DNA of 64,000 bases from Catenulispora sp. EB89. GTDB taxonomy: Bacteria > Actinomycetota > Actinomycetes > Streptomycetales > Catenulisporaceae. This document shows positions 47,638 to 63,055 of this stretch, in pieces. A model generated the notes under the pieces. That model was not told the DNA's origin. It did no database searches and worked only from the letters and a program-made list of their open reading frames with translations. The stretch is from NCBI RefSeq assembly GCF_041261445.1, contig NZ_JBGCCU010000033.1, positions 1-64,000 on the forward strand, read 5' to 3'. Position 1 is the first letter of the stretch. The number at the start of each line of letters is the position of its first letter. The translations under genes and the position numbers were made by a program.

Positions 47638-47652
47638 AGGGTCCGGAAACCC

Positions 47653-47681: not shown

Positions 47682-47698
47682 TTCCATGACGAAGGGTT

Positions 47699-47728
47699 AT
47701 CCGCATCACAAATCCCGTATATGCGGAT
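47699..47728. promoter_or_regulatory. Inverted repeat near the predicted transcription start
   Basis: Perfect 8-bp arms ATCCGCAT and ATGCGGAT flank 14 bp. It lies 18 bp beyond the candidate -10 and could be an operator or a leader hairpin; which one cannot be told. Confidence 0.4.
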
Positions 47729-47901
47729 CTTCACCACATCGCCTTTCACGTGACGTGCGGGCTGCGGCGACGCCGGCGTGGGACGTGGGGGCGGCTGTCA
47801 GCGCTCTGCCTCGCTCGTTCCCGGGGCACCGCGCCATGCCACGGCACCACCTCGGTTCCCGGCATGCCCGCCGGGACCGTCCTGATGAAAGGACTCCCCG
47901 C

Positions 47902-48615
47902 ATGCAACGCATCTCCACCAAACGGGGCCTGGCCGCCGGTCTGGCCACCGCCGCGGTCGCGGCCGGGATCGCCGCCCTGGGCTCCGGCGGCAGCGCCGCG
48001 GCGGACAGCGCCGCGACCTCCGCGGTCTCGGCCGGGCCCGCGACCTACAGCCAGGCGGTGCCCACCGGCGCGCCGTCGGTGTACAGCTCGCCGCTGGAGC
48101 GCTGCGCCACCGGCGTGGACCACCCGGTCAGCGGCGCCAACCCGATTCTGAGCGAGCCGCTGACCACGCAGTTCAGCAGCAACGTCGGCCTGTCGGAGGC
48201 GGTGTCGTTCAGCGGCGACCAGTGGTACGGGAACTGGACGTTCACGTTCACCAACACCTCGTCCGAGACCCTGGCCACGGACTGCGCGGTGCTGATCTGG
48301 CGCGCGCCTTCGAGCTCTGACAACCACGGCTACACGGCTTCGGTGGCGTACGGGCATCCGCAGCAGGACTACCTGGAGGTGCCGCGCGGGGACGGGACGT
48401 CGTTCTACATCGCGCGGCTCGGGTTCCACGACGTGCCGCTGAGCCAGCGGCAGGTCGGGCCGGGGCAGACGTTCACGTACACGTGGGGCGGGGCGCCGAG
48501 TACGGCGATCACGAACGAGCAGATTCGGGACTCGCTGCGGTTCACGGCGGACCTGAACCTGAGTGGGAACCAGAGCATGATCCTGCACTACGGGACGAAC
48601 CGGCTCACGAACTGA
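47902..48615 (+). CDS. Secreted protein of unknown function under DasR-like control
   Basis: A 237-residue exported protein: signal peptide with an Ala/Gly-rich core, then a mature all-beta domain with two cysteines (ERCATGVD, ATDCAVLIWR) that could pair. Strand-like segments such as QWYGNWTFTFTNTSSETLA and SFYIARLGFHDVPLSQRQ suggest a beta-sandwich. No family is recognised; the upstream DasR-like boxes hint at a role in chitin or amino-sugar use. ATG at 47902 with AAAGGA 8 bases upstream. Confidence 0.65.
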   Translation: MQRISTKRGLAAGLATAAVAAGIAALGSGGSAAADSAATSAVSAGPATYSQAVPTGAPSVYSSPLERCATGVDHPVSGANPILSEPLTTQFSSNVGLSEAVSFSGDQWYGNWTFTFTNTSSETLATDCAVLIWRAPSSSDNHGYTASVAYGHPQQDYLEVPRGDGTSFYIARLGFHDVPLSQRQVGPGQTFTYTWGGAPSTAITNEQIRDSLRFTADLNLSGNQSMILHYGTNRLTN

Positions 48616-48691
48616 GCCTGGCGGTGCTACGGGCGGCGGTTGCGCGGGTTCGGGCCGCCGTCCCGTTCTCAGCTGTCGAGAGGAGGGTTTG

Positions 48692-49216
48692 ATGCGCGCT
48701 GCGCGCCTCGGATTGCGCGGCCGGGCCGCCGGGTGGTGGTTCCTGCTGGCGGTGGTGGTCGCGGTGGTCGCGGCCAACTCGGTGTTGGCGGGGTGGTCTC
48801 GGGGGTCTGCTTCGGGTGGCGCTTCGAGTGCTTCCGGGCCGTCCGGGCCGTCGATGGTGCGGGCGCGGTCGGTGGCGACGCAGGAGTTCGGGCTGATGTC
48901 CGGCGGCGGGTGGGCGCAGGCGTGGGGGCTGTGGTCGGCGGCGGGGCGTGCGGCGTTGAGTGAGGGGGACTTCGTGCGGCTGAACACGGAGTGCCGGCCG
49001 GCACTGGGCGAGCCGTACGTGATCGACGCGGCGGCGGACGTCTCTGCGACAGACGTGAAGGTCGACTGGCATCAGGGGTCGATGACCGGCAACAGCACGG
49101 TGGTTTTCGAAGGCGGGGCGTGGAGATTCCAGCCGGACGCACAGACGCTGGCGGGATACCGGAGCGGCGTCGCGGCGGTGGTCGCGGAGCGGAAGGCGGC
49201 TGGGGAATGTCACTGA
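48692..49216 (+). CDS. Membrane-anchored hypothetical protein translationally coupled to CopC-CopD
   Basis: A 174-residue protein with one N-terminal membrane helix (WWFLLAVVVAVVAANSVLAGW), a Ser/Gly linker and an extracellular SnoaL/lumazine-like small domain (GWAQAWGLWSAAGRAALSEGDF, GNSTVVFEGGAWRFQP). AGGAGGG precedes the ATG at 48692. Its last codons overlap the start of the copper gene by 10 bp, so translation is coupled and the product may assist copper handling. No defined family. Confidence 0.65.
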   Translation: MRAARLGLRGRAAGWWFLLAVVVAVVAANSVLAGWSRGSASGGASSASGPSGPSMVRARSVATQEFGLMSGGGWAQAWGLWSAAGRAALSEGDFVRLNTECRPALGEPYVIDAAADVSATDVKVDWHQGSMTGNSTVVFEGGAWRFQPDAQTLAGYRSGVAAVVAERKAAGECH

Positions 49217-50856
49217 GGTCATCGCTCGGACGGCGCATCCTGACGGTGTGCGCCGCGGCGTTCGCGGCACTCGTCGTGCTCGCGGGTCCGGCTTCGGCGC
49301 ACGCGGAGTTGGCGTCGTCGACGCCTTCGCAGGGCGCTGTCGTGGGCAGCGAGCCGACGCGGGTGGGGCTGCGGTTCTCGGAGGAGATCGTGCTGAAGCT
49401 CAGCGCGGTGAAGGTGATCGGCCCCGACGGAAGGCGTCTGGACGCGGGGGCGCTGCATGCCGGGCCGTCCGGAGCAGACAGCCTCGCGGTGGACCTGGCG
49501 CCGGACACGCGGCACGGGACGTTCGTGGTGGTGTGGCAGGTCACGGCGGCCGACGACGGCCACGCGAGCTCCGGCACGGTGATGTTCGCGGTGGGGGCGG
49601 CGAGCGTGCCGGCGAGCGTCGCGGGGCTCGGACACAACCGCTTGACGAGTGCGACGTACGACGCGGGGCAATGGATCGGGTTCGCGGGACTCGCGATGAT
49701 CGGCGGGGTCGCGGCGCTGCACACGTATCGGCGGCGGGAGGATGGCGACGCAGGCGCCGGGCAGCTGACCGCAAGTATCGCCGCCGAGCAAGCAAGCCTC
49801 GCCACCGACTCGCCTACCACGCAAGTAGGCCTGACCACCGAGCGCATCGCGGCAAGCCCGGGCTCCGGGCAGCCGCCCGCAAGCATCGCCGCCGAGCAAG
49901 CAAGCCTCGCCATCGACTCGCCTGCCACGCGAGCAAGTCTGAGCGCCGAGGACTTCGCGCCAGAGCCAAGCACCGGCTCGGGCGCCGGGCAGCCGCCCGC
50001 AAGCATCGCCGCCGAGCGAGCAAGTCTGAGCACCGAGCGCAGCGCGGCAAGTCCGGGCGCCGGGCAGCGGCCTGAGAGATCGGCGGCCAGCGCTGCCGAA
50101 TCCGCGTCCGCGCCGAGCGCCACTCCCACCTGGCCGGCGGCGTTCGGTTGGTCGCTCTTGCTTGTCGGAACTTTGGTCCAGCTCACTGCCTATGCCCCTG
50201 CGACGCGCGGGCTGTCGCTTGGCCACCTGCTCGATCGCTCGCTGCTCTCCGTCACGCTCGGGACGCGCGAGGGCCACGCGTTCATGGCGCGGCTTGTCGT
50301 GCTGGCTGTGGCGGCGGTGGTGGGGGATGCGGTGTTGCGGTGGGCGCGGGGGCCGGTGGTGCCGTTGGCGTTCACGGTCGCGGTGGCGGGCACGTGGGGT
50401 GCGACCGGGCACGCGGCGACCGGGGGTGGGGCGCCGGTGGCGATGGTGGCTTTGACGCTGCATGTCGCGGCGATGGCGGTGTGGGTCGGGGGGCTGTTCG
50501 TGGTGGCGGTGTTGTTGGCCGGTGGGGGTGCGGCGGTGGCGGCGGCGGTGCGGCGGTTCTCGCGGCTGGCGCTCGGGGCTGTCGGGGTGTTGGTGGCGAC
50601 CGGGTTGTATCAGGCGTGGCGGGAGGTCGGGAGTGTCAGTGCTCTGCTGGACACCACGTACGGCCGCCTGTTGCTCGCCAAGGTCGCGATCCTGCTGTGC
50701 GTGATCGGCGTGGCCAGGGGGTCGCGCGGGATCGTGGCGACGTGGCACGGCGGGAGTGCGGCGGCGCTGCGGCGGAACGTCGTGGTGGAGCTCGCCGGCG
50801 CGTCGGTGCTGCTGTTGTTGGCTGTGTTGCTGGCTGGGAACGCACCGGCGCGGTAG
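49207..50856 (+). CDS. CopC-CopD fusion, copper resistance/uptake protein with repetitive linker
   Basis: A 549-residue protein. The CopC domain follows the signal peptide; cleavage after ASA would leave His32 as the mature N-terminus (HAELASSTP). With the DDGH segment (VTAADDGHASSG) this can form the Cu(II) His-brace site. A first membrane helix (QWIGFAGLAMIGGVAALH) comes next, then a ~120-residue linker of three imperfect repeats (GQPPASIAAEQASLA...) and then the CopD-type helices (HVAAMAVWVGGLFVVAVLLA; ALGAVGVLVATGLYQAW). The family moves copper across the membrane. The linker is unusual. ATG at 49207 overlaps the previous gene. Confidence 0.85.
   Translation: MSLRSSLGRRILTVCAAAFAALVVLAGPASAHAELASSTPSQGAVVGSEPTRVGLRFSEEIVLKLSAVKVIGPDGRRLDAGALHAGPSGADSLAVDLAPDTRHGTFVVVWQVTAADDGHASSGTVMFAVGAASVPASVAGLGHNRLTSATYDAGQWIGFAGLAMIGGVAALHTYRRREDGDAGAGQLTASIAAEQASLATDSPTTQVGLTTERIAASPGSGQPPASIAAEQASLAIDSPATRASLSAEDFAPEPSTGSGAGQPPASIAAERASLSTERSAASPGAGQRPERSAASAAESASAPSATPTWPAAFGWSLLLVGTLVQLTAYAPATRGLSLGHLLDRSLLSVTLGTREGHAFMARLVVLAVAAVVGDAVLRWARGPVVPLAFTVAVAGTWGATGHAATGGGAPVAMVALTLHVAAMAVWVGGLFVVAVLLAGGGAAVAAAVRRFSRLALGAVGVLVATGLYQAWREVGSVSALLDTTYGRLLLAKVAILLCVIGVARGSRGIVATWHGGSAAALRRNVVVELAGASVLLLLAVLLAGNAPAR
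49739..50080 (+). repeat. Imperfect tandem repeat coding the CopC-CopD linker
   Basis: Three units starting GGGCAGCTGACCGCAAG, GGGCAGCCGCCCGCAAG and GGGCAGCCGCCCGCAAG, each continuing with CATCGCCGCCGAGC, at about 49756, 49866 and 49987. The units keep the frame open and code for Ser/Ala/Glu-rich polar sequence. Confidence 0.75.
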
Positions 50857-50870
50857 GTGAAGCGCGGAGC

Positions 50871-51863
50871 TCAGCCCACCCGCAGCACCGTCTTCCCCGA
50901 CCGCTCCCCCGCCTCGAACCCCCGGTGCACCTCGGCCACCTCGGCGATCGGCACCACGCTCGGCGCCTCGTACGCCAACTCCCCCGAGGCCAGCGCTGCC
51001 AGCGCGCGCTCCAGGTGTCCGCCGATCGTGGCCGGGGCCCGGCGTGCCACGTCGCCGATGTTGAAGCCGGCGACCGCCCGCGAGTTCTTCCACAGCGCGA
51101 ACACGTCCTCCGACCAGTCGTCGTGCCGGCCCTGGTCGCCGAACACCACCACCCGCCCGAACGGCGCCAGCGCCCGCAGGCTCGCCGCGCGCACCGGCCC
51201 GCCGATGGGGTCCAGCACCAGGTCCACGCCGCGGCCGTCGGTAGCCTCCAGCACCTGGTCGGCGAACGCCTCGCGCGCGAACAGCGCGTCGTAGCCCGCC
51301 GGCTGCTTCGCCGGGGAGCCGACGGTCCCGAAGACGTGCCGCGCCCCGGCCGCCCGGGCGATCCGCGCCGCCGCGCCCCCGACGCCGCCGGAAGCCGAGT
51401 GGATCAGCACGCTGTCACCCGCGCGCAGCCGCCCGACGTCGGACACCAGCCCGTAAGCCGTCGGGTAGACACACGGCACCCCGGCCGCGACCTCCAACGA
51501 CAGCCCGCCGACCGGCCGCACGAAGTCGGCCGACGTGACCGCGTACTGCGCGTACCCGCCGAACGACGGCAGATACGCGGCGACATCCTCCCCCACCCGC
51601 ACCTCGGTGACGCCATCCCCAACGGCGACCACACGCCCGGACGCCTCCAGCCCCGGCACGTCGTAGCCGCCCGGCCCGTCAGGCTCCCCGAACTCCCCAC
51701 GCCGATGCTGAACCTCGGCGAAGTTGACGCCGGCGAAGGCGACTTCGATCAGGACGCTGCGATCATCCAGGCCGGGAACCGGCAGCTCGATGGATTCGAA
51801 GACCTCGGGGCCGCCGTTGGACCGGAAAGCGTGGGCGCGCATCGTCGCCGGCAGGGTGCTCAT
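50871..51863 (-). CDS. NADPH:quinone reductase-like MDR oxidoreductase
   Basis: A 330-residue zinc-free MDR protein. VLIEVAFAGVNFAEVQHRRG and the cofactor loop LIHSASGGVGGAAARIA fit quinone reductase/zeta-crystallin relatives, with VVFGDQG later in the Rossmann domain. ATG at 51863 lacks a clear ribosome site; Met8 (MRAHAF) at 51842 is an alternative. It is convergent with the copper gene and codirectional with the methyltransferase upstream (68-bp gap). Confidence 0.85.
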   Translation of the reverse strand: MSTLPATMRAHAFRSNGGPEVFESIELPVPGLDDRSVLIEVAFAGVNFAEVQHRRGEFGEPDGPGGYDVPGLEASGRVVAVGDGVTEVRVGEDVAAYLPSFGGYAQYAVTSADFVRPVGGLSLEVAAGVPCVYPTAYGLVSDVGRLRAGDSVLIHSASGGVGGAAARIARAAGARHVFGTVGSPAKQPAGYDALFAREAFADQVLEATDGRGVDLVLDPIGGPVRAASLRALAPFGRVVVFGDQGRHDDWSEDVFALWKNSRAVAGFNIGDVARRAPATIGGHLERALAALASGELAYEAPSVVPIAEVAEVHRGFEAGERSGKTVLRVG

Positions 51864-51931
51864 GAAAAGACCGCAACAAATCCTTGACGGCTGATCATTC
51901 CCACGCCGTCACCGGCGGCCGGCACCGACGA

Positions 51932-52705
51932 TCAGGCGCCGCCCCGCACCGCCACCAGATGCAGTAGCGCAGCGACATGCCGATACGGATCAGTCCGCCC
52001 GGCCCGCTCCTCGGCGTCCAGCACGGCCTCCATCGTGGCCTCGTCAGGCAGTTCGGCGTGCACCGCGATATCCGTGAACACGCGAACCCCGTACCACTGC
52101 GCCACCGCCAAATCCCGCCGCGCCAACTCCGCAGTCAGCTCCTCCAGCCGATCCGCCCGCGCGTCCACGCCCAACCGGTTGCGATACCCGCTGCCCTCGA
52201 ACGCCGCGTTCGCCGCCTCCCAGTCGCCGAGCAGCCCGGGTCGCATCGCGAGCGCGTCCCCGTTCCGGACCAGCAGCGACACGGTCCCGCCGGGCGCCAC
52301 CGCCCCCGCTATCGCATCCAGCAACGGCCCGGGGTCGGCGAAGTACATCAGGACGCCGTGGCACAACACCACGTCGAAACTCCCCGCAGGGAACAGCGAA
52401 CCGAGCGCCGTAGCATCGCCCCGCACCAGCCGCACCCGCTCGCGGACGTTCTCAGGTTCGGCGGCCAGAGCGGCGCGGAAATCGTCGAGCAACTGCTCCG
52501 AGGTGTCCAGTCCGGTCACCGAATGACCGCGTCGAGCCGACAACAGCGCCTGAGTCCCTTGCCCGCACCCGATGTCCAGCACCCGCCGCGCCGGCAGATC
52601 CGGCACGTGTGCGGCGACCTGCCGGGTCACCATCTCTTGTCTGACAACCTGCCGAAGCGTCCCCAGGCGCGAACGCCACCGGTCGGACGGAAAAGCCACG
52701 CTCAC
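51932..52705 (-). CDS. Class I SAM-dependent methyltransferase
   Basis: A 257-residue methyltransferase: motif I VLDIGCGQGTQALLSARRG, acidic loop GLDTSEQLLDD, motif II/III VRGDATALGSLFPAG and FDVVLCHGVLMYF, as in UbiE/CmoM-like small-molecule methyltransferases. GTG at 52705 is chosen because GAGGAG lies six bases upstream. It is divergent from the Pls-type synthetase with a 211-bp shared promoter region, so it might modify that product, but no direct evidence exists. Confidence 0.82.
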   Translation of the reverse strand: MSVAFPSDRWRSRLGTLRQVVRQEMVTRQVAAHVPDLPARRVLDIGCGQGTQALLSARRGHSVTGLDTSEQLLDDFRAALAAEPENVRERVRLVRGDATALGSLFPAGSFDVVLCHGVLMYFADPGPLLDAIAGAVAPGGTVSLLVRNGDALAMRPGLLGDWEAANAAFEGSGYRNRLGVDARADRLEELTAELARRDLAVAQWYGVRVFTDIAVHAELPDEATMEAVLDAEERAGRTDPYRHVAALLHLVAVRGGA

Positions 52706-52916
52706 ACCAAGCTCCTCAAAGATCCTCAACCCATGGGGCTCGCCATGACCTGCCGGAACCCCCCGCACGCCGTTTGCTACTACTCTCTTTAGTTGTTCTT
52801 AACACCGTTCTTACCTAGCGACCGACCATAATGGAGTGAGCATGGCCGGTCGCGTCGCCACCCGAGGGCTGCCAGGCCTGACGTCTTAATGGCTACGACG
52901 ACTCGAGAAAAACTTC
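52706..52916. promoter_or_regulatory. Divergent promoter region of methyltransferase and Pls-type synthetase
   Basis: The AT-richest spot of the locus (about 52775-52815) holds a direct repeat GTTCTTA at 52795-52801 and 52807-52813 (12-bp period), a possible activator site. No perfect palindrome is seen. Confidence 0.4.
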
Positions 52917-55900
52917 ATGCAACCCACCCAGGACACGGTCACGACCATGCCCCTCGGGCGCATCCTGCCGGCCTCGCTGGACCACGCGGTCTGGCCGGTG
53001 GCCCAGGCTGCGCGGGCACGGACCCTCGTCGACGTCCTCGACGCGACCGTCCAGCAGCACCCCGAGGCGCCCGCCCTGGAAGCGGCGGGTACCGCGCTCA
53101 GCTACCGCGAGCTGCGCGGTGCCGTCGCCGCGCTGGCCGACACCCTGCGCGGGCACGGAGTCGGGCCCGGCGACAAGGTCGGCGTCCGCGTGCCGTCGGG
53201 GACCCTCGATCTGTACGTCGCGATCCTGGCCGTGCTGGCCGCCGGCGCCGCGTACGTGCCGGTCGACGTGGACGACCCCGACGAGCGCGCCGAGATGATC
53301 TGGCAGGACGCCGCGGTGTGCGCGGTGCTCGGCGAGGACCGTGCGATCGGGCCCGGGCCCGGGACGGCCGGACGGCGCCCCGGACCGCCGGCGCTGACCG
53401 ACGACGCGTGGGTGATCTTCACCTCGGGCACCACCGGACGTCCCAAGGGCGTCGCGGTCTCGCACCGCTCGGCCGCCGCGTTCGTCGACGCCGAGGCCCG
53501 CCTGTTCGTCCAGAACCGGCCGCTGGGGCCCGGCGACCGGGTCCTGGCCGGGCTCTCGGTCGCCTTCGACGCCTCCTGCGAGGAGATGTGGCTGGCCTGG
53601 CGGCACGGCGCCTGCCTGGTCCCGGCCCCGCGCTCGCTCGTGAAGGCCGGCACCGATCTGGGGCCGTGGCTCGTCGAGCGCGGCATCACCGTGGTCTCCA
53701 CGGTCCCGACGCTGGTCGCGCTGTGGCCCGCCGAGGCGCTGGACCGGGTGCGGCTGCTCATCGTGGGCGGCGAGTCCTGCCCGCCGGAGCTGGTCGAGCG
53801 ACTGGCGGTGCCGGGCCGGGAGTTCTGGAACACCTACGGCCCGACCGAGGCCACCGTCGTGGCCTGCGCCTCGCTGATGCGCGCCGGAGCGCCGGTGCGG
53901 ATCGGGACGCCGCTGGACGGCTGGGAGCTGGCCGTCGTCGACGGCCAGGGGCAGCCGGTGCCCTGGGGGCAGACCGGCGAGCTGCTGATCAGCGGGGTCG
54001 GCACCGCGCGCTACCTGGATCCGGCCAAGGACGCCGAGAAGTTCGCGCCGCATCCGGCGTTGCCGAGCCGGCGCGTCTACCGCACCGGCGACCTGGTGCG
54101 CGCCGAGCGCGAAGGGCTGATCTTCGTCGGCCGCGCCGACGAGCAGGTGAAGATCGGCGGACGCCGGATCGAGCTCGGCGAGGTCGACGCGGCGTTGCAG
54201 GCGCTGCCCGGCGTGCGGGCGGCGGCCGCGGCGGTCAAGGACAGCCCGGCCGGCGGGCAGGTGCTCGTCGGCTATCTCGTCGTCGACGGCTCGGCGGGAC
54301 AGCCCGGCGGCATCCCGCATCAGCGTTCTGCCGACGCCGACGCCAGCGGCGGCAGCGACAGCAACAGCGGCGGCAGCAACGGCAACGGCGGTGCGGCGGC
54401 AGCGAGCGACTTCGACAAGAACGCGGCGCGCGAACTCCTGCTCCACAAGCTCCCGCCGGCGCTGGTCCCGGTGCTGGCACTGGTCGACGACCTGCCGACC
54501 CGCACCTCCGGCAAGGTCGATCGCAAAGCCCTGCCCTGGCCGCTGCCCGGCCAGGAGGCGGCCGCGGCCGGTTCGGCGGCGGGTCTGGGCGGCACCGCCG
54601 GCTGGATAGCCGAACAGTGGCAACGGCTGCTCGGCGTCCCGGTCGAGGCCGACAGCGACTTCTTCGGCCTCGGCGGCAGCAGCCTCACCGCGGCGCGGCT
54701 GGTCGGCGAGATGCGCGACCGGTTCCCCGGGTTCACCGTCAAAGACCTGTACCAGCACCCGAAACTGCCGGAGCTGACCCGGTTCCTGGACGCCTCCGAA
54801 CAGGCTGGCGGCCAGGCCGGCAAGCCGCGGGTGCGGCACCGCCGCGTGCACCTGACGCCGGCGACCGCCGGGCTGTACCAGGGCGTGGTGCTGGCGGTCA
54901 TGTTCGTCGTCACGGCCATCCCGTGGGTGCTCGGCATCGCCGCGATGGACGACGTCATCGGGCCGGTGACGTGGGCTCCGCACACCTCGTGGTGGCTGAT
55001 CGTCGGCGGCTGGCTGGCGCTGGGCAGCGCCCCGGCGCGCATGGTCATCAGCGGCGTCGGCGCGCGGGTGTTCACGCACAACCTGCAGCCCGGCTCCTAC
55101 CACCGCGGCGGCTGGACGCACCTGCGGTTGTGGACCGCCGAGCGGCTGGTCGGCGCGTTCAGCCTGGCCGGGGTCACCGGCACACCGATGGCGTCCCGCT
55201 ACGCGCGGATACTGGGGTGCCGGGTCGGGCGCGACGTGCAGCTGCACTCGCTGCCGCCGGTGACCGGCATGGCGGCGTTCGGGGACGGCGCGGTGCTGGA
55301 GCCGGAGGTGGACTGCGCGGGCTGGTGGATCGAGGGCGACCTGCTGCACGTCGGCGGGATCCGGGTCGGGCCGCACGCCTCGGTCGGGACCCGGTCGATG
55401 CTGATGCCCGGCGCGGACATCGGCGCCTGCGCTGAGGTCGCGTCCGGCAGCTGCGTGTCCGGGACCGTCCCGGAGGGCCAGCGGTGGCACGGGACGCCGG
55501 CCCGGCGCGACGAGGACGTGCCGACGTTCAAGTGGCCGCCGCCGGAGTACCGCACGTCAGGGTTCTGGAACCTGGTCTACATGGTCACGCTGCCGGCGAT
55601 GCAGCTGCTGCCGTTGCTGGCGGCCGCACCGGCGTTGGTGTTCCTGTACTTGTGGCGCGGCGCGCATCCCGAGCCCGGCGGCCTGGCCGACCTGATACTG
55701 CTGTCGTCGGTGCCGTTCACCGTGGTCACGGTGGTCTGCTACGCGCTGCTGACCGCGCTGGTGGTGCGGGTCCTGTCGCGCAAGATCGTGCCGGGGGTGT
55801 ACGCGGCGCACGGCCGGGTGGCGTGGAACGTGTGGGTCGTGCACCGGCTGATGGAGACCTCGCGGGTCGCGTTGTTCCCGCTGTACGCCAGCCTGGCCAC

Positions 55901-56954
55901 GCCGGTGTGGCTGCGGCTGCTGGGAGCCAAGGTCGGACGGCGCGTCGAGGCCTCGACCGTGCTGGCGCTGCCCAGCCTGATGGAGGTCGACGACCACGCG
56001 TTCCTGGCCGACGACACGCTGATCGCGCCGTTCGAGATCCGCGGCGGCTGGCTGCGGCTGGGGCCGGCGTACGTCGGGAAGCGGGCGTTCGTCGGGAACT
56101 CCGGGATGGTCGGGCCGTTCCGGCGGGTCGCCGACGAGTCGCTGATCGGCGTGCACTCCGACACTCCGCCGCGCACGTCCCCGGGCGACTCGTGGCTGGG
56201 GCGGCCGGCGTTCACGGTGCAGCGGCAGGTGGAGGGCGGAGAGTCCACGGCGCGGACGTACGACCCGCCGTTCCGGCTGGTGGCGGCGCGCGGCTTCGTG
56301 GAGCTGTGCCGGTGGCTGCCGTTGTTCCTGACGGTGCTGCTCGGGGACCTGGCGGTGATAGGCGTGCAGGCCGCGTACGACAAGCTCGGGTTGTACGGCG
56401 CGCTGCCGGCCGCGATGGGGCTGCTCCTGGCGACCGGGGTGGTCGCGTGCCTGCTGACCACGGCGGCGAAGTGGCTGCTGGTGGGGCGGTTCCGGGTCGG
56501 GCAGAAGCCGTTGTGGAGCTCGTTCGTGTGGCGCAACGAGCTGTTCGACACGTTCATCGAGGAAGTGGGGATGCCCTGGCTCGGGGCGTCGCTGATCGGG
56601 ACGCCGTTCATGAACATGTGGATGCGCAGTCTCGGGGCGCGGATCGGGCGGGGCGTGTGGTGTGAGAGCCACTGGCTGCCGGAGACCGACCTGGTGACGC
56701 TGGGCGACGGCGCGACGGTGAACCGCGGGGTGGTGCTGCAGACGCACCTGTTCCAGGACCGGCTGATGCGGATGGACACGGTGACGCTGGGGCGCGGGGC
56801 GACGTTGGGGCCGCACGCGATCGCGCTGCCGGGGACGCAGCTGGACGACGCGGCGGTGGCCGGGCCGTACTCGCTGGTGATGCGCGGGGATCGATTGCGG
56901 GCCGGCACGCGGTGGCATGGGAATCCCGTCGCACACTGGGATTCGGAGAGTTAG
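52917..56954 (+). CDS. Pls-type (epsilon-poly-L-lysine synthetase-like) membrane non-ribosomal peptide synthetase
   Basis: A 1345-residue membrane enzyme that should polymerise one amino acid into a short isopeptide chain. The A domain has A3 FTSGTTGRPKGV (from residue 168), A4 FDASCEEMWLAW (Asp218), A5 NTYGPTEATV and A10 GKVDRKALP. The T domain reads DFFGLGGSSLTAAR (phosphopantetheine Ser589). Six helices follow at about 654-675, 690-712, 886-912, 925-950, 1132-1154 and 1162-1190. They separate three related soluble domains with hexapeptide-repeat (left-handed helix) character. No condensation or thioesterase domain exists. This is the Pls/PosA/MA layout. By alignment to GrsA the specificity residues read D-A-E-S-I-G-T-V-V-K, and the Glu suits a cationic side chain. 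ATG at 52917 with weak ribosome site. Confidence 0.9.
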   Translation: MQPTQDTVTTMPLGRILPASLDHAVWPVAQAARARTLVDVLDATVQQHPEAPALEAAGTALSYRELRGAVAALADTLRGHGVGPGDKVGVRVPSGTLDLYVAILAVLAAGAAYVPVDVDDPDERAEMIWQDAAVCAVLGEDRAIGPGPGTAGRRPGPPALTDDAWVIFTSGTTGRPKGVAVSHRSAAAFVDAEARLFVQNRPLGPGDRVLAGLSVAFDASCEEMWLAWRHGACLVPAPRSLVKAGTDLGPWLVERGITVVSTVPTLVALWPAEALDRVRLLIVGGESCPPELVERLAVPGREFWNTYGPTEATVVACASLMRAGAPVRIGTPLDGWELAVVDGQGQPVPWGQTGELLISGVGTARYLDPAKDAEKFAPHPALPSRRVYRTGDLVRAEREGLIFVGRADEQVKIGGRRIELGEVDAALQALPGVRAAAAAVKDSPAGGQVLVGYLVVDGSAGQPGGIPHQRSADADASGGSDSNSGGSNGNGGAAAASDFDKNAARELLLHKLPPALVPVLALVDDLPTRTSGKVDRKALPWPLPGQEAAAAGSAAGLGGTAGWIAEQWQRLLGVPVEADSDFFGLGGSSLTAARLVGEMRDRFPGFTVKDLYQHPKLPELTRFLDASEQAGGQAGKPRVRHRRVHLTPATAGLYQGVVLAVMFVVTAIPWVLGIAAMDDVIGPVTWAPHTSWWLIVGGWLALGSAPARMVISGVGARVFTHNLQPGSYHRGGWTHLRLWTAERLVGAFSLAGVTGTPMASRYARILGCRVGRDVQLHSLPPVTGMAAFGDGAVLEPEVDCAGWWIEGDLLHVGGIRVGPHASVGTRSMLMPGADIGACAEVASGSCVSGTVPEGQRWHGTPARRDEDVPTFKWPPPEYRTSGFWNLVYMVTLPAMQLLPLLAAAPALVFLYLWRGAHPEPGGLADLILLSSVPFTVVTVVCYALLTALVVRVLSRKIVPGVYAAHGRVAWNVWVVHRLMETSRVALFPLYASLATPVWLRLLGAKVGRRVEASTVLALPSLMEVDDHAFLADDTLIAPFEIRGGWLRLGPAYVGKRAFVGNSGMVGPFRRVADESLIGVHSDTPPRTSPGDSWLGRPAFTVQRQVEGGESTARTYDPPFRLVAARGFVELCRWLPLFLTVLLGDLAVIGVQAAYDKLGLYGALPAAMGLLLATGVVACLLTTAAKWLLVGRFRVGQKPLWSSFVWRNELFDTFIEEVGMPWLGASLIGTPFMNMWMRSLGARIGRGVWCESHWLPETDLVTLGDGATVNRGVVLQTHLFQDRLMRMDTVTLGRGATLGPHAIALPGTQLDDAAVAGPYSLVMRGDRLRAGTRWHGNPVAHWDSES
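54285..54420 (+). repeat. Gly/Ser/Asn-coding low-complexity insertion in the Pls A domain
   Basis: GGCAGC/AACAGC/GGCAAC units code for about 25 residues (ASGGSDSNSGGSNGNGG) within the A-domain C-terminal subdomain, before the A10 lysine loop. Probably a solvent-exposed loop. Confidence 0.65.
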
Positions 56955-56994
56955 CGGTCAGCAGTTGGTAGTTGGCGGATAGCGGACAGCGGTT

Positions 56995-57031
56995 TGTGGC
57001 CGGGCCGGGGATGGATCCCGGTCCGGCCACA
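56995..57031. terminator. Bidirectional terminator after the Pls-type gene
   Basis: Arms TGTGGCCGGGCCGGG and CCCGGTCCGGCCACA form a 15-bp stem with one G-U pair around a GATGGAT loop. It lies between the Pls stop (56954) and the convergent DUF574 stop (57043). Confidence 0.75.
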
Positions 57032-57042
57032 GACGTTTCCCG

Positions 57043-57870
57043 CTAGGGCTTGCGCGCCAGCACGCCGTAGGTCCGCAGGATCGGCGTCTCGACGCTGTTC
57101 GGCTCGGGCTGCCACTGGTCGACCGTGACCAGACCCGGCGGCTGAATCTCCAGGTCTTCGGCGGCCAGCCAGCCGGCGATCACCTCGGGCTCGCGGTTGA
57201 TGAACGGCACGCGCGTCGAGCGCTGGTAGTCGTCGAGCATCTGCTGCTGTTCGCCGGGGTGCGCCAGGTCCGGGGCGGCGTGCGACAGGGCCAGGTAGCT
57301 GCCCGGGGCGGCGGCTTCGATGTAGGCCGCGACGATGCCCGCGGGGTCGTCGGCGTCCGGGACGAAGTGCAGGACCGCGTTCATCAGGATGGCGACCGGC
57401 TTGGTCAGGTCCAGGGTCTGCCGCAGCAGCGGGTGCGCCAGGACGCTGTCGGGGCGGCGCAGGTCGGCCAGGATCGCGACCGCGTTGGGGGTCTGCGCCA
57501 GCAGCATGCGGGAGTGCGCGATGGCAACCTGGTCGACGTCGACGTAGACCACGCGCGCCTCGGGGTTCACCTCCATCGCGACCTCGTGCACGTTGCCCGC
57601 GGTCGGCACGCCGGAGCCCAGGTCCAGGAACTGGCTGACGCCGACCGTGCCGGCCAGGTGGCGGACCACGCGGCCGAGGAAGGCGCGGTTGGCGCGGATC
57701 GCGCCGACCAGGGTGGGCATGGCGTCGGCGGCGCGGCGGCCGGCCTCGCGGTCGGCCTCGAAGTTCTGGCTGCCGCCGAGCCAGAAGTCGTAGATACGGG
57801 CTGGGCTGGGCTGCGACGGGTCAATGTCCGGAAGACTCAAGGCCAGCTCCGCAGCGTCGATCGCGTCCAT
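57043..57870 (-). CDS. DUF574-type SAM-dependent methyltransferase
   Basis: A 275-residue actinobacterial methyltransferase. The family's opening PSPARIYDFWLGGSQNFEADR, SAM motif SQFLDLGSGVPTAGNVHEVA, VVYVDVDQVAIAHSR and MNAVLHFVPD are unmistakable for Methyltransf_19. Targets are undefined; such genes are numerous in actinomycetes. ATG at 57870; TTG and GTG codons just upstream are also open and no Shine-Dalgarno is visible, so a leaderless start is likely. Convergent with the Pls gene. Confidence 0.88.
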   Translation of the reverse strand: MDAIDAAELALSLPDIDPSQPSPARIYDFWLGGSQNFEADREAGRRAADAMPTLVGAIRANRAFLGRVVRHLAGTVGVSQFLDLGSGVPTAGNVHEVAMEVNPEARVVYVDVDQVAIAHSRMLLAQTPNAVAILADLRRPDSVLAHPLLRQTLDLTKPVAILMNAVLHFVPDADDPAGIVAAYIEAAAPGSYLALSHAAPDLAHPGEQQQMLDDYQRSTRVPFINREPEVIAGWLAAEDLEIQPPGLVTVDQWQPEPNSVETPILRTYGVLARKP

Positions 57871-58183
57871 GGGCACCAAACTAGCGGCGGCACCGGGTCA
57901 CGGGCCGGGTTGAGCGGGGGGAAGGGGGCGTCGCGTTGAGGATTCGGCGACGGCACCGCTTTGCGCGCTAGCCTGCCTCGATCACCGGCGCTGCGCAACT
58001 GCGCGGTGGTGGGGCGGGGTTTTGGGCCCAGTTTTGGGCCGGTTTTGGGGCAGGTCGCGGGGCGGATCGTGGGTGTGTCCTATCGGGTCGTGGGGAAACG
58101 GGGTCGCGGGCGCGGTTCGAGGCGCTCTGGGGCGCTCTGAGCCGCTCTGAAGCGCCGTTCCGGGGTGCGCTACGGTCGAGCCC
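57871..58183. other. Intergenic region with G-runs and a 10-bp repeat
   Basis: 313 bp between divergent genes. It holds repeated GTTTTGGG words with six or more G-runs (58008-58065) and three 10-bp units at 58121-58150. No gene or classical operator is seen. Confidence 0.5.
58121..58150. repeat. Three-unit 10-bp tandem repeat upstream of peptidase E
   Basis: GGCGCTCTGG, GGCGCTCTGA, GCCGCTCTGA in direct succession, 33 bp before the peptidase E start codon. It overlaps the likely promoter. Confidence 0.8.
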
Positions 58184-58906
58184 ATGGCTGCGGACGGACG
58201 GAAACACATCCTGGCGATCGGCGGCGGGGCGCTCATGCCGCGCGAGACGTTTCCGCTGTACTGCGCGGAGGCGATCCGGCTCAGCGGCAAGGCGCGGCCG
58301 AAGATGTGCGTGCTGAACACCGCCGAGGGCGACAACCCGGCCACCACGCAGCGTGTCCACGACCGGCTCGCCGGCGGCCCGGGCGAGCTGCGGCACCTGG
58401 CGCTGTTCCCGATGCCGAACGTCGCAGACCCCGAAGACCTTCTGCTGTCGCAGGACGTGGTGTTCGTGGGCGGCGGGAGCGTGGCCAACATGCTGGCGGT
58501 GTGGCGCGTGCACGGGCTCGACGAGGTGTTCCGCAAGGCGTGGGAGGCCGGCGTGGTGCTGCTCGGGTCGAGCGCCGGCGGGATCTGTTGGTTCGAGGGC
58601 GGGACGACGGACTCGTTCGGTCCGCGGCTGCGGCCGTTCACGGACGGGCTGGGGCTGCTGAAGGGGTCTTACTGCCCGCATTACGAGTCGGAGGAGCTGC
58701 GGCGGCCGCTGTTCCAGCGGCTCGTGCAGGACGGGACGCTGCCGGACGGGTACGGGTGCGACGACGGGGTCGCGGTGCATTACGTGGACGACGAGTTGGC
58801 GGAGGTCGTCGCGGATCGGCCGGGGGCGCGGGGGTTCTCAGTGCGGCGGGGTAGCGAGGGCGTGGTCGAAGAGTCCGCACTGGACGTGCGGTTTCTGGGC
58901 GAGTGA
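58184..58906 (+). CDS. Peptidase E-like (S51) serine hydrolase
   Basis: A 240-residue class I amidotransferase-fold peptidase related to PepE/cyanophycinase. GGGSVANMLAVWR precedes the nucleophile elbow LGSSAGGICW (Ser130), and the His lies in YCPHYESE. PepE releases N-terminal Asp dipeptides; relatives degrade cyanophycin. ATG at 58184. It is two genes from the Pls-type synthetase, and a role in turnover of its polymer can be imagined but is not supported by motifs. Confidence 0.85.
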   Translation: MAADGRKHILAIGGGALMPRETFPLYCAEAIRLSGKARPKMCVLNTAEGDNPATTQRVHDRLAGGPGELRHLALFPMPNVADPEDLLLSQDVVFVGGGSVANMLAVWRVHGLDEVFRKAWEAGVVLLGSSAGGICWFEGGTTDSFGPRLRPFTDGLGLLKGSYCPHYESEELRRPLFQRLVQDGTLPDGYGCDDGVAVHYVDDELAEVVADRPGARGFSVRRGSEGVVEESALDVRFLGE

Positions 58907-58929
58907 CCGGGCGCCGGCAGCTCGCGGCG

Positions 58930-59478
58930 TCAGCCTGAGCCGGCGAGGCCGGTGAGCACGACGTCGATCGCGCCGCACATCGTCGCGGCGGGGACCGGGG
59001 ACGCGGCGGCGGCCTGCGCGAGGCCGCGGACCAGGAAGTAGACCTCGTCGACGGTGACGCCGGGGCGGATCGCGTTGGCGTCCTGAGCGCGCTGCACCAC
59101 GGCCCCCACGGCTTCCTTGAGACGGTCCGAGGCCTGCTCGGCGTCGGCGGGGATGCGGCCGTCGGCGGTGATGAGGGTGGCGAGGGCGATCTTCGTCGGG
59201 CCGTCCTCGATCATGGTGCGGACCAGGGTACGCAGCGCCTCGGCGGGGTCGTCGGACGCGGCGAGCCGGAGTGCCAGCTCGGTACGGCGCTCGAAGGTGC
59301 GGACCAGCGTCGCCTCGATCAGCTGGTCCTTGGTCGGGAAGTTGCGGAAGACGGTGGCGATGCCCACCCCCGCACGCCGCGCGACCTCCTCCGTGGACCC
59401 GGTGCTCCCCTGCTCGCTGAAGACGTCCTCGGCCGCGGCCAGGATGCGCTCGCGGTTGAGGCGGGCGTCGGTGCGCAT
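58930..59478 (-). CDS. TetR-family regulator
   Basis: A 182-residue repressor: RERILAAAEDVFSEQGSTGS, then VARRAGVGIATVFRNFPTKDQLIEA forms the HTH, with an all-helical effector domain. ATG at 59478. It is divergent from the SnoaL-like gene, and a long inverted repeat with 15-bp arms lies between them, so mutual regulation is nearly certain. Confidence 0.87.
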   Translation of the reverse strand: MRTDARLNRERILAAAEDVFSEQGSTGSTEEVARRAGVGIATVFRNFPTKDQLIEATLVRTFERRTELALRLAASDDPAEALRTLVRTMIEDGPTKIALATLITADGRIPADAEQASDRLKEAVGAVVQRAQDANAIRPGVTVDEVYFLVRGLAQAAAASPVPAATMCGAIDVVLTGLAGSG

Positions 59479-59517
59479 TGGTTTCTCCCGGGCGTGGTGC
59501 GGTCGCGACGACTATAT

Positions 59518-59561
59518 CCGGAGTCTGGACTCTGGTACGGTAAGTGGAGTCCAGACTCCGG
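59518..59561. promoter_or_regulatory. Double operator between tetR and the SnoaL-like gene
   Basis: Perfect 15-bp arms CCGGAGTCTGGACTC (59518-59532) and complement (59547-59561) separated by 14 bp. Each arm is itself nearly palindromic (GAGTC-TG-GACTC), so two TetR dimers could bind. The spacer holds a possible -10 (TACGGT). Confidence 0.8.
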
Positions 59562-59573
59562 AAAGGGGTGCGC

Positions 59574-60080
59574 GTGAGCATGTCCGAATCTCAGACGCGG
59601 GATCCGCAGCAGGTGCCGGCGCCGGCCGACGTCGTCAGGGCGGTCGCCGCAGGAGTGAGCCGCCTGGTCTCCGACGACCTCGACGCCGCCCAGCGCGAGG
59701 AACAGCTCGACCGCCTGGCCGCCCTGTACGGCGAAGCCACCGACGTCCGCCACCCCTTCGCACCGCTCGGCGACCACCCCCGCTCCAGCCGCGCCGGCAT
59801 CCGCGAACACTTCGCCGCCGCCCGGGTCCCGGTCGAGTCGATGACCGCCGTGGACGTCCACGTACACGAGACGGCCGATCCGGAAGTCGTCATCACGGAG
59901 TTCCGCTACGTGGGGACGACCGCGGGACGGCCGTTCTCGTTCCCGTGCATCTTCGTCACGCGGGTGCGCGACGGCGTGATCGTCGAAGCCCGCGACTACA
60001 CCGACCACGTCGGCGCCGCGCGGGCGTTCGGGCAGCTGGACGGTTTGGCCGCGGCTCTGGCCGAGCAGGCAGGGGCCTGA
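59574..60080 (+). CDS. SnoaL-like polyketide-cyclase-fold protein
   Basis: A 168-residue cone-fold protein: EEQLDRLAALYGEATDVRHP, FAAARVPVESMTAVDVHVHE, ADPEVVITEFRYVG and IFVTRVRDGVIVEARDYTDH match SnoaL_2-type ligand-binding or isomerase proteins. GTG at 59574 is taken because AAAGGGG lies five bases upstream; the ATG two codons later (59580) is equally usable. Controlled by the divergent TetR. Substrate unknown. Confidence 0.83.
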   Translation: MSMSESQTRDPQQVPAPADVVRAVAAGVSRLVSDDLDAAQREEQLDRLAALYGEATDVRHPFAPLGDHPRSSRAGIREHFAAARVPVESMTAVDVHVHETADPEVVITEFRYVGTTAGRPFSFPCIFVTRVRDGVIVEARDYTDHVGAARAFGQLDGLAAALAEQAGA

Positions 60081-60109
60081 TATCTAACGGCCGACGACGG
60101 GGAGGGCGC

Positions 60110-60295
60110 CGAGCAACGACGACCGGCTCGCACGCCGGGCACGAAGCCGCCGACTTCGGCAGTTCCACGCCGGTACCGATCGGCTGATCGCCGACGGGCT
60201 CGCTCGTACGCAGGTCCCACCGGCGGATGCGGCCTTCCGGTCCGTGCGACCCAGCGCGCCAACCCGCCGTAGACAGTGCCCGCCGACCGCCGCAG
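60110..60295 (-). pseudogene. Possible remnant of a WD40-repeat gene
   Basis: In one minus-strand frame this gene-free stretch reads EGRIRRWDLRTSEPVGDQPIG, the typical end of a WD40 blade. A neighbouring frame holds YGGLARWVA just upstream, as if frameshifted. No start, no ribosome site and no second blade are seen, so this is at most an eroded fragment. Confidence 0.3.
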
Positions 60296-60301
60296 GCGCG
60301 C

Positions 60302-60646
60302 CTAGAACCCGGCCATCACCTCGCGCCCCTGCGGGATCGCCAGGTCCAGCAGGCCGGGGAACAGCTCGTCGAGATCGGTGCGGCGGAGGCGGTTCAGGCG
60401 GCGGGTGCCTTCGTCGCATTGGCGGATGACGCCGGCCTCGCGCAGGGTGCGGAAGTGGCCGCTTTGGGTGGACTTGCTGACCGGCAGCTGGAAGACGCCG
60501 CAGGCGAGTTCGCCGTCCGGCTCGACGTCGGCGAGGCGGGCGACGATCGCCAGGCGCATCGGGTCGCTCAGGGCCGCCATGACGGCGGTGAAGCGCAGCT
60601 CGGCGCGGGTGGGGTGGGTGAGTTCGGTGGCGGTGCGGCTGGCCAT
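60302..60646 (-). CDS. ArsR-family transcriptional regulator
   Basis: A 114-residue winged-helix repressor: VMAALSDPMRLAIVARLADVE, LPVSKSTQSGHFRTLREAGVI and the wing EGTRRLNRLRRTDLDE. The metal-binding ELCVCDL motif is absent (ELACGVFQL keeps only one Cys), so it is likely a non-metal-sensing ArsR. ATG at 60646. Divergent from an MFS exporter with twin palindromes between them. Confidence 0.85.
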   Translation of the reverse strand: MASRTATELTHPTRAELRFTAVMAALSDPMRLAIVARLADVEPDGELACGVFQLPVSKSTQSGHFRTLREAGVIRQCDEGTRRLNRLRRTDLDELFPGLLDLAIPQGREVMAGF

Positions 60647-60665
60647 GCGGCCATTGTAGGACACC

Positions 60666-60712
60666 ATGTTCAGGATTCCCGAACATCTGCTATGTTCGGG
60701 ATCTCCGAACAT
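60666..60712. promoter_or_regulatory. Twin ArsR operators
   Basis: Two 21-bp inverted repeats with ATGTTC...GAACAT ends (60666-60686 and 60692-60712), centres 26 bp apart, fill the 86-bp space between arsR and the MFS gene. They should control both. Confidence 0.8.
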
Positions 60713-60732
60713 GTTGCCTCGGGAGGACTCTC

Positions 60733-62007
60733 ATGGCGCTCGATCGTCCTGGTGCGGTGCGTACCGCCGATGCCGTTGGTGCCGTTGGTGCCGCGCCGGA
60801 TGTCGGCGGCGGTGCCCGCACGCTGTCGGTGGCGGGCAAGCGGATCCGTTTCTGGGGAACGGCGTACACGTTCCTCGTCCTGCTCACCGGCACGAACCTG
60901 CCGACACCGCTCTACAAGGGCTACGAGGCGCGCTTCGGTTTCTCGCCGCTGACCCTGACGCTGATCTTCACCGCCTATGTCGCGGTCCTGATTCCCTCGC
61001 TCCTGGTGGTCGGGCCGGCGGCGGACGCCGTGGGCTACCGCGTCATGCTGCTGCCGGCGCTGTTCGTCGCGGCGGGCGGGGCGCTGGTGTTCGCGCTCGC
61101 GTCCGGTACCGGGTGGCTGTTCGCGGGGCGCATCTTGCAGGGCGTCGCGATCGGGGCGGCGACCGGGCCGCTGACCGCGACGTTGACAGAGCTCGAACCC
61201 AACGGCGACCGGCGGAAGGCCGCGTTGATATCGACCGTCGCGACGGCCGGCGGCCTCGGATTCGGGCCGCTGCTGGCGGGATTCCTCGCGCAGTACGCGC
61301 CGGCGCCGCGGGTGTTGCCGTTCGCGGTGGAGATCGCGTTGCTGGTGCCGGCCGTCGTGGTGGTCCTGTCGCTCCCCGCGCACAGCGCCCGGACGCGCTG
61401 GCGCCCGCGACGCCCGGAGATCCCGGCGGCGCTGCGTGCGGAGTTCGCGACGAGCGGGACGGCGTGCTTCGCGGCGTTCGCGGTGGTGGGCCTGTTCCTC
61501 ACGCTGATCCCGACCTACGTCGCGACGCTGTCCGGCAGCAAGAACCTGCTCCTCGGCGGCGCGGCGGTGGCGCTGATGCTGGCCTGCTCGGCGACGGCGC
61601 AGGTGCTCGGCTACGGCCGTTCGGCGCGCGGGCTGGAGATCGCGGGGCTGCCGCTGCTGGCCGCGGGGCTGGTCGCGCTCGCGATCGCGGGAAGCGCGTC
61701 ATCGCTGGCGCTGCTGATCGGCGCGACGGTGGTCGCCGGCCTCGGGCAGGGCCTGACCTTCCTCGGCGGGCTGACCGCGATCAACAGCGCGGCACCCGCG
61801 GACCGCCGGGCCGACGTGCTGTCGAGCTTCTTCGTGATCCTGTACCTGGGGGTCGGCGTACCGGTGGTGGGCGTCGGGTTCGTGGCGACGCGGGTGGGGC
61901 TGCTGACGGCGGTGCAGTACTTCGCATGGGGCGCCGCGGTGCTGTGCGTGGCGGTGTTGGCGGCGCTCGTGCGGATGGCGCGGAAGGTTACGGTTGATCT
62001 CACGTAA
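60733..62007 (+). CDS. MFS transporter (12 TM)
   Basis: A 424-residue exporter of the major facilitator superfamily. Motif A-like VVGPAADAVGYRVMLLPALF and the glycine-rich TM5 TAGGLGFGPLLAGFLAQY are present, with about twelve hydrophobic segments. ATG at 60733 with GGGAGGA. It probably exports the ligand sensed by the divergent ArsR protein. Followed after 25 bp by the nitronate monooxygenase gene, likely one transcript. Confidence 0.86.
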   Translation: MALDRPGAVRTADAVGAVGAAPDVGGGARTLSVAGKRIRFWGTAYTFLVLLTGTNLPTPLYKGYEARFGFSPLTLTLIFTAYVAVLIPSLLVVGPAADAVGYRVMLLPALFVAAGGALVFALASGTGWLFAGRILQGVAIGAATGPLTATLTELEPNGDRRKAALISTVATAGGLGFGPLLAGFLAQYAPAPRVLPFAVEIALLVPAVVVVLSLPAHSARTRWRPRRPEIPAALRAEFATSGTACFAAFAVVGLFLTLIPTYVATLSGSKNLLLGGAAVALMLACSATAQVLGYGRSARGLEIAGLPLLAAGLVALAIAGSASSLALLIGATVVAGLGQGLTFLGGLTAINSAAPADRRADVLSSFFVILYLGVGVPVVGVGFVATRVGLLTAVQYFAWGAAVLCVAVLAALVRMARKVTVDLT

Positions 62008-62032
62008 GACCTCTCGGGAAAGGACGGCGTCC

Positions 62033-63055
62033 ATGGCCGGGCTGCTGGAGTCTGATCTGCCGATCGTGGCGGCGCCGATGGCGGGCGGTCCGACCACGGT
62101 CACGCTGGCCGAGGCGGTGCTCAAAACCGGGGCGTTCCCGTTCCTGGCCGGGGGCTACAAGACGGCCGACGCGCTGGCGGCAGAAATGCGGCAGGTCCGG
62201 GAGTTCGGCGGGGCGTTCGGTGTGAACCTGTTCGTGCCGGGCCCCGGGGCCGTCGACGAGGCCGCGTTCCGCGCCTACGCCGCCGAGGTGGCACCGGAGG
62301 CGGCGCGGCTCGGGGCCGACGTGAATCCCGTCCCGGTCCTCGACGACGATGACGCGTGGTCCGACAAGCTGGCGCTGTTGCTCGCCGAGCCGGTGTCGGT
62401 GGTGTCGCTGACGTTCGCGTTGCCGGACGCCCGGGACATCGCGGCGTTGCGCCGTGCCGGGAGCCGGGTGCTGGCGACGGTGACGACCGCGGCGGAGGCC
62501 CGGGCCGCCCGCGACGCGGGGGTCGACGGGCTCGTGGTCCAGGCGCCGGCGGCCGGTGGGCACAGCGGCACGTACGACCCGCTGCGCGCCCTGACCTCGG
62601 TGAGCGCGCCGGATCTGGTGCGCGAGGTCCTGGCGGCGGTGGAACTGCCGGTCGTGGCCGGCGGTGGCGTGGCCGGCGGCGAGGATGTACGTGCCCTGTT
62701 TCAGGCCGGCGCCGAGGCGGTCGCGGTCGGGACGCTGCTGCTGCGCACCACCGAGTCGGGGGCCTCGCAGACCCACAAGGACGCGCTCGCGAACCCGGCC
62801 TTCACCGAGACCACGATCACCCACGCCTTCACCGGACGCCCGGCACGCGGCCTGCGCAACGCCTTCATCGACCGCCACGAGGCCACGGCGCCCCACGGCT
62901 ACCCGGCGATCCACCACCTGACCCGGCCGCTGCGTCAGGCTGCTGCGAAGGCCGGGGATCCGGACCGGCTGCACCTGTGGGCCGGCACCGGGTTCCGGGC
63001 CGCACGGGAAGGGTCGGCGGGTGAAGTGATTCGGGGGCTGGCCGAAACCTTGTAG
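62033..63055 (+). CDS. Nitronate monooxygenase (2-nitropropane dioxygenase-like)
   Basis: A 340-residue FMN TIM-barrel enzyme oxidising alkyl nitronates. IVAAPMAGGPTTVTLAEAV opens the barrel. VDGLVVQAPAAGGHSG gives the AGGHxG flavin motif with its His. PVVAGGGVAGGEDVRALFQAGA and VAVGTLLLRTTES complete the FMN site. ATG at 62033 with AAAGGA 8 bases upstream. It is in an operon with the MFS transporter under ArsR control; the pair may detoxify and export nitro compounds (inference). Confidence 0.87.
   Translation: MAGLLESDLPIVAAPMAGGPTTVTLAEAVLKTGAFPFLAGGYKTADALAAEMRQVREFGGAFGVNLFVPGPGAVDEAAFRAYAAEVAPEAARLGADVNPVPVLDDDDAWSDKLALLLAEPVSVVSLTFALPDARDIAALRRAGSRVLATVTTAAEARAARDAGVDGLVVQAPAAGGHSGTYDPLRALTSVSAPDLVREVLAAVELPVVAGGGVAGGEDVRALFQAGAEAVAVGTLLLRTTESGASQTHKDALANPAFTETTITHAFTGRPARGLRNAFIDRHEATAPHGYPAIHHLTRPLRQAAAKAGDPDRLHLWAGTGFRAAREGSAGEVIRGLAETL

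What the first reader, a model, noticed from the sequence alone, without database searches (positions are those of the whole stretch)
52917..56954. New Pls-type poly-amino-acid synthetase with a basic-residue specificity code
The order A domain, T domain, six helices and three interleaved hexapeptide-repeat-like domains, without C or TE domain, is the architecture of epsilon-poly-L-lysine synthetase and its PosA/MA relatives. Reading the binding-pocket positions by alignment to GrsA gives D-A-E-S-I-G-T-V-V-K. The Glu at position 239 is expected to pair with a side-chain amine. From memory this is close to lysine-type codes. The locus may make an undescribed cationic homopolymer.
Basis: partly seen in the sequence, partly recalled or inferred. 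Interest (0 to 1): 0.85.

Follow-up and report, generated by a model that had tools for sequence, protein, structure and literature searches.

The report
Extra epsilon-polylysine synthetase gene without peptidase
A soil actinobacterium of the genus Catenulispora carries an intact gene of the known family that strings lysine into the antimicrobial polymer epsilon-poly-lysine; its lysine pocket is the same as in the solved enzyme, so a new polymer is unlikely, but the gene belongs to a branch that lacks the polymer-degrading gene that normally follows it.

Summary
ORF 52917-56954 (1345 aa) is an intact A-T protein with the Pls/PosA terminal domain (TIGR02353, 650 bits, cut-off 423). AlphaFold2 and Foldseek support membrane helices and three beta-helix regions. 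The code DAESIGTVVK is read correctly.

The code is not new: it equals that of the solved epsilon-poly-L-lysine synthetase 7WEW (A domains 71% identical) and recurs in 82 of 82 other Lys-type rows examined. The tree puts the gene inside the Pls family, next to the S. albulus-like Pls. Expected: L-lysine in, epsilon-poly-L-lysine out. An undescribed polymer is not supported.

Less ordinary: 43 of 45 Lys-type loci outside its clade are followed by an M1 peptidase (PldII type); the window gene and its clade have none. Of 23 named genomes with such a copy, 20 also hold a peptidase-coupled synthetase. The window's genome holds three synthetases: this one, a Pls with M1 peptidase, and a poly-diaminobutyrate type. 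New member of a known kind.

The parts
52917..56954 (+). Pls/PosA-family synthetase gene, 1345 aa, apparently monocistronic
   Evidence: dN/dS 0.14-0.18
52986..54551 (+). adenylation domain (residues 24-545), code DAESIGTVVK at residues 218, 219, 222, 261, 282, 284, 306, 314, 315, 533
   Evidence: 71% identity over 485 aligned residues to 7WEW, same code
54288..54407 (+). low-complexity Gly/Ser/Ala-rich stretch (about residues 458-497) that splits the match to 7WEW
   Evidence: query residues 458-493 lie between the two matched stretches; sequence
54603..54788 (+). thiolation (carrier) domain, residues 563-624, with an invariant Ser at about residue 589 (GGSS)
   Evidence: PF00550; invariant column S35 of alignment A1, 39 rows
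54879..56930 (+). Pls/PosA terminal domain: six membrane helices, three beta-helix (C1-C3) regions
   Evidence: TIGR02353; AlphaFold2; Foldseek
56745..56747 (+). codon of His1277 in the C3 motif LQTHLFQDR, candidate catalytic base (inference)
   Evidence: His in 66 of 66 rows of one alignment and 20 of 20 further rows
52769..52916 (.). upstream intergenic region, parts conserved in Catenulispora (presumed promoter)
   Evidence: one of the five relatives, L044, was cut at the wrong place there
51932..52768 (-). divergent methyltransferase (PF08241); neighbour found again only in Catenulispora loci, probably not part of the system
57043..57879 (-). convergent SAM methyltransferase (PF04672) in the place where an M1 peptidase gene usually follows pls

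Best explanation
The gene is an epsilon-poly-L-lysine synthetase (Pls). The A domain activates L-lysine with ATP and loads it on the T domain; the membrane-embedded terminal domain then joins the lysyl carboxylate to the epsilon-amine of a free, growing chain, again and again, giving a secreted cationic isopeptide. It belongs to a Streptomycetales sublineage that lacks, and has probably lost, the PldII-type M1 peptidase gene usually coupled to pls, and it usually shares its genome with a second, peptidase-coupled Pls. Shown here: family, intact motifs, identical lysine code, phylogeny, absent peptidase, co-occurrence, purifying selection. Inferred: substrate, linkage, product, and a role as an extra or differently regulated source of epsilon-polylysine, perhaps of another chain length.
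For: TIGR02353 650 bits against a cut-off of 423. Best PDB hit by sequence 7WEW, epsilon-poly-L-lysine synthase; same ten-residue code, pocket blocks differing in 2 of 44 residues. In the tree of 43 proteins the window's clade and the S. albulus-like rows form one group (100/100), among peptidase-coupled Pls from other actinobacteria. PMC8117764 (Results read): a C. variabile Pls with 51% identity to Streptomyces Pls makes epsilon-PL of 26-35 residues in S. coelicolor; the window protein is about 57% identical to the S. albulus-like L123. Code in 63 of 63 Lys-type rows, window included, and in 20 of 20 further rows.
Against: No biochemical test. The code does not decide chain length, linkage or chirality. 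I know of no member of the peptidase-less clade that is certainly characterised; the K. aureofaciens gene cited in reviews may be a coupled or a peptidase-less copy. No lysine-pathway or polymer-protection gene was seen beside it, and expression is unknown.
Confidence: 0.82

Rival explanations
1. It makes a chemically different cationic homopolymer (beta-lysine, a D-residue, a hydroxylated or mixed polymer).
For: It is a separate paralogue kept in genomes that already have a coupled Pls, which invites a new role; the terminal-domain regions are only 49-55% identical to the S. albulus-like L123.
Against: Code identical to 7WEW and unlike the epsilon-poly-beta-lysine code DGESISVVNK. No aminomutase or racemase among 20 neighbouring ORFs scanned with Pfam. 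Under a strict criterion 7 positions separate the clade from both coupled groups, mostly conservative and none at a code position; a looser one gives 19, of which residue 303 lies beside the pocket.
Confidence: 0.08
2. It makes epsilon-poly-L-lysine of a distinctly different (for example short) chain length, and the missing peptidase goes with that. This is a sub-case of the best explanation, not exclusive of it.
For: Reviews report that a Kitasatospora aureofaciens pls moved into S. albulus gives short-chain epsilon-PL (PMC8506220 section 8; PMC7188835 passage). Both K. aureofaciens genomes seen carry peptidase-less copies (L065; L061 and L067) that fall in the window's clade.
Against: Both genomes also carry a peptidase-coupled Pls (L166/L185 and L156), and which copy was used is not known here. 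PMC8506220 says that inactivation of Pld and PldII did not change the degree of polymerisation (passage); PMC9223678 reports that repression of pldII gave longer chains (passage).
Confidence: 0.3
3. It is a silent or decaying duplicate of the resident Pls.
For: No operon partner; present in only 6 of 10 Catenulispora genomes.
Against: dN/dS 0.14-0.18, motifs intact, 91-96% protein identity to five relatives in the genus, conserved upstream blocks.
Confidence: 0.07

Closest known systems
epsilon-poly-L-lysine synthetase Pls of Streptomyces albulus (A domain 7WEW)
   Same: Architecture, pocket code, pocket blocks; A domain 71% identical; S. albulus-like rows are in the sister group in the tree
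   Different: No PldII-type M1 peptidase behind the gene; a Gly/Ser/Ala-rich stretch in the A domain; terminal-domain regions 49-55% identical to the S. albulus-like L123
Catenulispora Pls-M1 pair on C11 of the same genome (L041)
   Same: Same code, same architecture, 51% identity
   Different: Followed by an M1 peptidase; type found in 9 of 10 genomes of the genus; a deeper branch of the tree
PosA, delta-poly-L-ornithine synthetase (PMC10522769, sections 4, 8, 10, 11, 13 and passages read)
   Same: Family and terminal domain
   Different: Code DMEHNGTVSK; Met instead of Ala at the chain-length position
poly-diaminobutyrate type (C16 of the same genome, L042)
   Same: Family and terminal domain
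   Different: 33% identity, code DFECLSVVSK, followed by a diaminobutyrate transaminase and an aspartate kinase gene

Membership tests
Pls/PosA-family synthetase (TIGR02353) | Terminal-domain model over its curated cut-off | tested here: met
   650.3 bits, cut-off 423.1
Pls/PosA-family synthetase (TIGR02353) | A and T domains followed by six membrane helices and three tandem regions, no C or TE domain | tested here: met
   five of six helices also pass a simple hydropathy line
epsilon-poly-L-lysine synthetase (Pls) | Lysine pocket code as in the solved enzyme | tested here: met
   DAESIGTVVK in both
epsilon-poly-L-lysine synthetase (Pls) | Falls in the Pls clade, apart from Dab-type synthetases | tested here: met
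   Lys-type rows apart from Dab-type rows at 100* and 100/100; grouped with S. albulus-like rows at 100/100
epsilon-poly-L-lysine synthetase (Pls) | Coupled downstream PldII-type M1 peptidase (usual, not strictly defining) | tested here: not met
   No M1 match at E 1e-8 among ORFs over 150 aa in window 44001-64000
epsilon-poly-L-lysine synthetase (Pls) | L-Lys activation and epsilon-linked lysine polymer | not testable with these tools
   needs enzyme assay and mass spectrometry

The most novel reading that the evidence does not exclude
The peptidase-less Pls clade of Catenulispora, Streptacidiphilus, Kitasatospora and some Streptomyces makes a functionally distinct poly-lysine (other length, end group or cell-bound form) that escapes or relies on the partner locus's PldII, so that one genome runs two lysine polymers plus a poly-diaminobutyrate.
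Probability: 0.25. Interest if true: 0.5.

Novelty: new member of a known kind. Interest (0 to 1): 0.3.

Why it matters
Epsilon-polylysine is a food preservative whose chain length matters for use, and its natural role is unclear. Genomes that keep two lysine synthetases, one with and one without the coupled degrading enzyme, offer a natural comparison for what sets chain length and what PldII is for. A new polymer from this gene is not expected.

Tried and rejected
Considered and rejected: (1) A novel code: identical to 7WEW. (2) The flanking methyltransferases as tailoring enzymes: in the clustering of 43 regions they recur only in Catenulispora, on the opposite strand. (3) A beta-lysine or D-residue pathway: no such gene among 20 neighbouring ORFs scanned with Pfam. 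(4) A chain-length reading from the linker residues W646 and L883 of S. albulus Pls (named in PMC8506220): I printed the linker regions but could not fix the numbering, so I draw nothing from it. (5) Direction of the peptidase change: with the distant Dab type as outgroup (branch 3.4) the coupled rows, L141 included, are one side of a branch (96/97) and the peptidase-less rows are not a clade; with nearer actinobacterial Pls, and in the quick tree, the peptidase-less rows are one clade. I prefer a single loss, but stands against it.

Limits: the 39 loci came from a pattern scan with the window protein and favour close kin; I passed 23 of the 39. One search gave 72 synthetase rows: 24 with an M1 peptidase, 44 without, 3 of Dab type, and L048 at a contig end. 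Of the 44, 39 have at least 1.5 kb downstream; L055, L056, L076, L087 and L088 do not. The tree left out 6 of the 72 rows (those three repeats, L060 as a near copy of L058, and L087 and L088 as partial); it kept L086, a long-branched row from a genome whose synthetases read in pieces, which later trees omit. One search left out the same kind of rows plus L086. The trees used 34 and 43 chosen rows; L238 (37% identity, Lys code, no M1 within its 2.5 kb downstream) was dropped. The M1 peptidases were named by Pfam in two cases (L041, L049) and elsewhere by BLAST likeness to that of L041. An even census of the order with the whole window protein failed twice.
Full report
What is there. The window lies in contig C33 of an 11.9 Mb genome of the genus Catenulispora (closest named relative C. 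rubra, 96% over the whole protein). The ORF 52917-56954 encodes 1345 residues. Pfam gives an AMP-binding and a carrier domain and no condensation or thioesterase domain; NCBIfam adds the Pls/PosA terminal domain (25 of 118 families shown). AlphaFold2 on residues 555-1345 with 39 sequences (mean pLDDT 87.3, pTM 0.88) shows paired long helices followed by a beta-helix pattern three times over; Foldseek finds maltose and galactoside O-acetyltransferases and other hexapeptide proteins first (E 1.4e-05 and weaker, local matches). This agrees with the model for PosA described in PMC10522769 (section 13 read).

The pocket. [quoted passage not shown] four pocket blocks that I chose around the code positions differ in 2 of 44 residues. 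Of the 66 rows, window included, 63 carry this code and 3 (Dab type) carry DFECLSVVSK; of 20 further rows from other actinobacterial families, 20 carry it. PMC10522769 (passages) states that Lys-activating members have Ala where PosA has Met and PDAP synthetase has Phe. So this is the known lysine code of the family and not a new one.

Place in the family. In a quick tree of 66 proteins and a careful tree of 34 the window gene lies among Lys-type synthetases, far from the Dab type. In a careful tree of 43 without the Dab type its clade and the S. albulus-like rows together form one group (100/100).

The missing peptidase. PMC8117764 (Results read) and PMC9223678 (passages) describe pls as coupled to pldII, a peptidase gene. 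I found an M1-family peptidase directly behind Lys-type pls in 24 of 72 rows and in 19 of 20 loci from other families of the class (the exception, L238, is 37% identical to the window protein). Outside the window's clade that is 43 of 45 Lys-type loci, the other miss, L048, being at a contig end. I did not have the PldII sequence; that this M1 protein is PldII rests on its place and on the description of PldII as an aminopeptidase-like metallopeptidase. The window gene and its clade lack it: 44 loci without an M1 match, 39 of them with at least 1.5 kb downstream. In one search the peptidase-less rows are one clade (100/98, in 100% of 200 bootstrap trees), which suggests one loss, rooted on the distant Dab type, they are not a clade, so the direction is probable and not proven.

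Co-occurrence. Of 23 named genomes with a peptidase-less copy that I searched (23 of the 39 loci), 22 hold more than one match to the family, and in 20 of 23 an M1 peptidase lies beside a partner synthetase: 17 (L153-L169), and L183, L184 and, in broken pieces, L188. In C. pinisilvae and C. pinistramenti the partner sits at a contig end, and Streptomyces humicola has only the one synthetase. Two Lys-type synthetases in a genome are not special to this clade: genomes G073 and G238 pair an S. albulus-like with another coupled type. In Catenulispora the window type occurs in 6 of 10 genomes, the C11 type in 9 of 10, the Dab type in 3 of 10; two of the ten genomes are under 85% complete. More widely, Lys-type A domains were found in 169 of 391 genomes of the order (E up to 1e-100) and 64 of 296 of the class (E up to 1e-90), so the family is common.

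Function. The gene is intact and under purifying selection (dN/dS 0.14, 0.15, 0.14, 0.14, 0.18). Mechanism as given for Pls in PMC9205021 (section 10 read): lysine is adenylated, loaded on the carrier, and joined by the terminal domain to a free chain that is never covalently held. I add one inference: His1277 in C3 is kept in 66 of 66 and 20 of 20 relatives (the motif QTHLF.DR around it in 19 of the 20), Dab type included, and sits in a fold whose other members use a His as catalytic base (recalled), so it is a candidate for the base. Substrate and product are inferred from code and tree. A proven Pls, that of C. variabile, is reported as 51% identical to Streptomyces Pls (PMC8117764), against about 57% for the window protein and the S. 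albulus-like L123; the two figures come from different alignments.

What would be new. Reviews say that a K. aureofaciens pls gives short-chain epsilon-PL in S. albulus (PMC8506220 section 8 read; PMC7188835 passage; the original, Xu et al. 2019, I have not seen). Two K. aureofaciens genomes each carry a peptidase-less and a coupled copy, so this may or may not bear on the window's clade. Searches that could have shown an earlier description of such a clade (no paper with both Catenulispora and polylysine; 10 of 37 papers listed; 2 of 2 listed) showed none in their listings, but they cover open-licence papers only and I read only the parts named. Overall the finding is an ordinary, well-supported member of the Pls family in a mildly interesting genomic setting.

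Noticed in passing
L042 (G000:C16:99000-118900), synthetase at 10141-14193: A third synthetase of the family in the same genome, code DFECLSVVSK, followed by a diaminobutyrate-2-oxoglutarate transaminase, an aspartate kinase and an oligopeptidase-B-like peptidase: looks like a gamma-poly-diaminobutyrate operon.
   Followed up: partly
L041 (G000:C11:196000-215900), 6282-11692: Second Lys-code synthetase of the same genome with an M1 peptidase right behind it, the usual Pls-PldII arrangement.
   Followed up: yes
L057-L060, L072, L079, L089, upstream of pls: In Streptacidiphilus the peptidase-less pls is preceded on the same strand by two shared gene clusters, in L057 a solute-binding protein and a PdtaS-type histidine kinase by Pfam.
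   Followed up: no
L188 (Streptacidiphilus sp. 4-A2): Synthetase and M1 peptidase genes match in pieces across frames; perhaps errors of that assembly.
   Followed up: no
window 58184-58906: Peptidase family S51 gene near the locus, a different family from the M1 peptidase.
   Followed up: no
L091, L092: Ruminococcus MAG loci matched over residues 33-612 only (28-29% identity): probably ordinary NRPS similarity.
   Followed up: no
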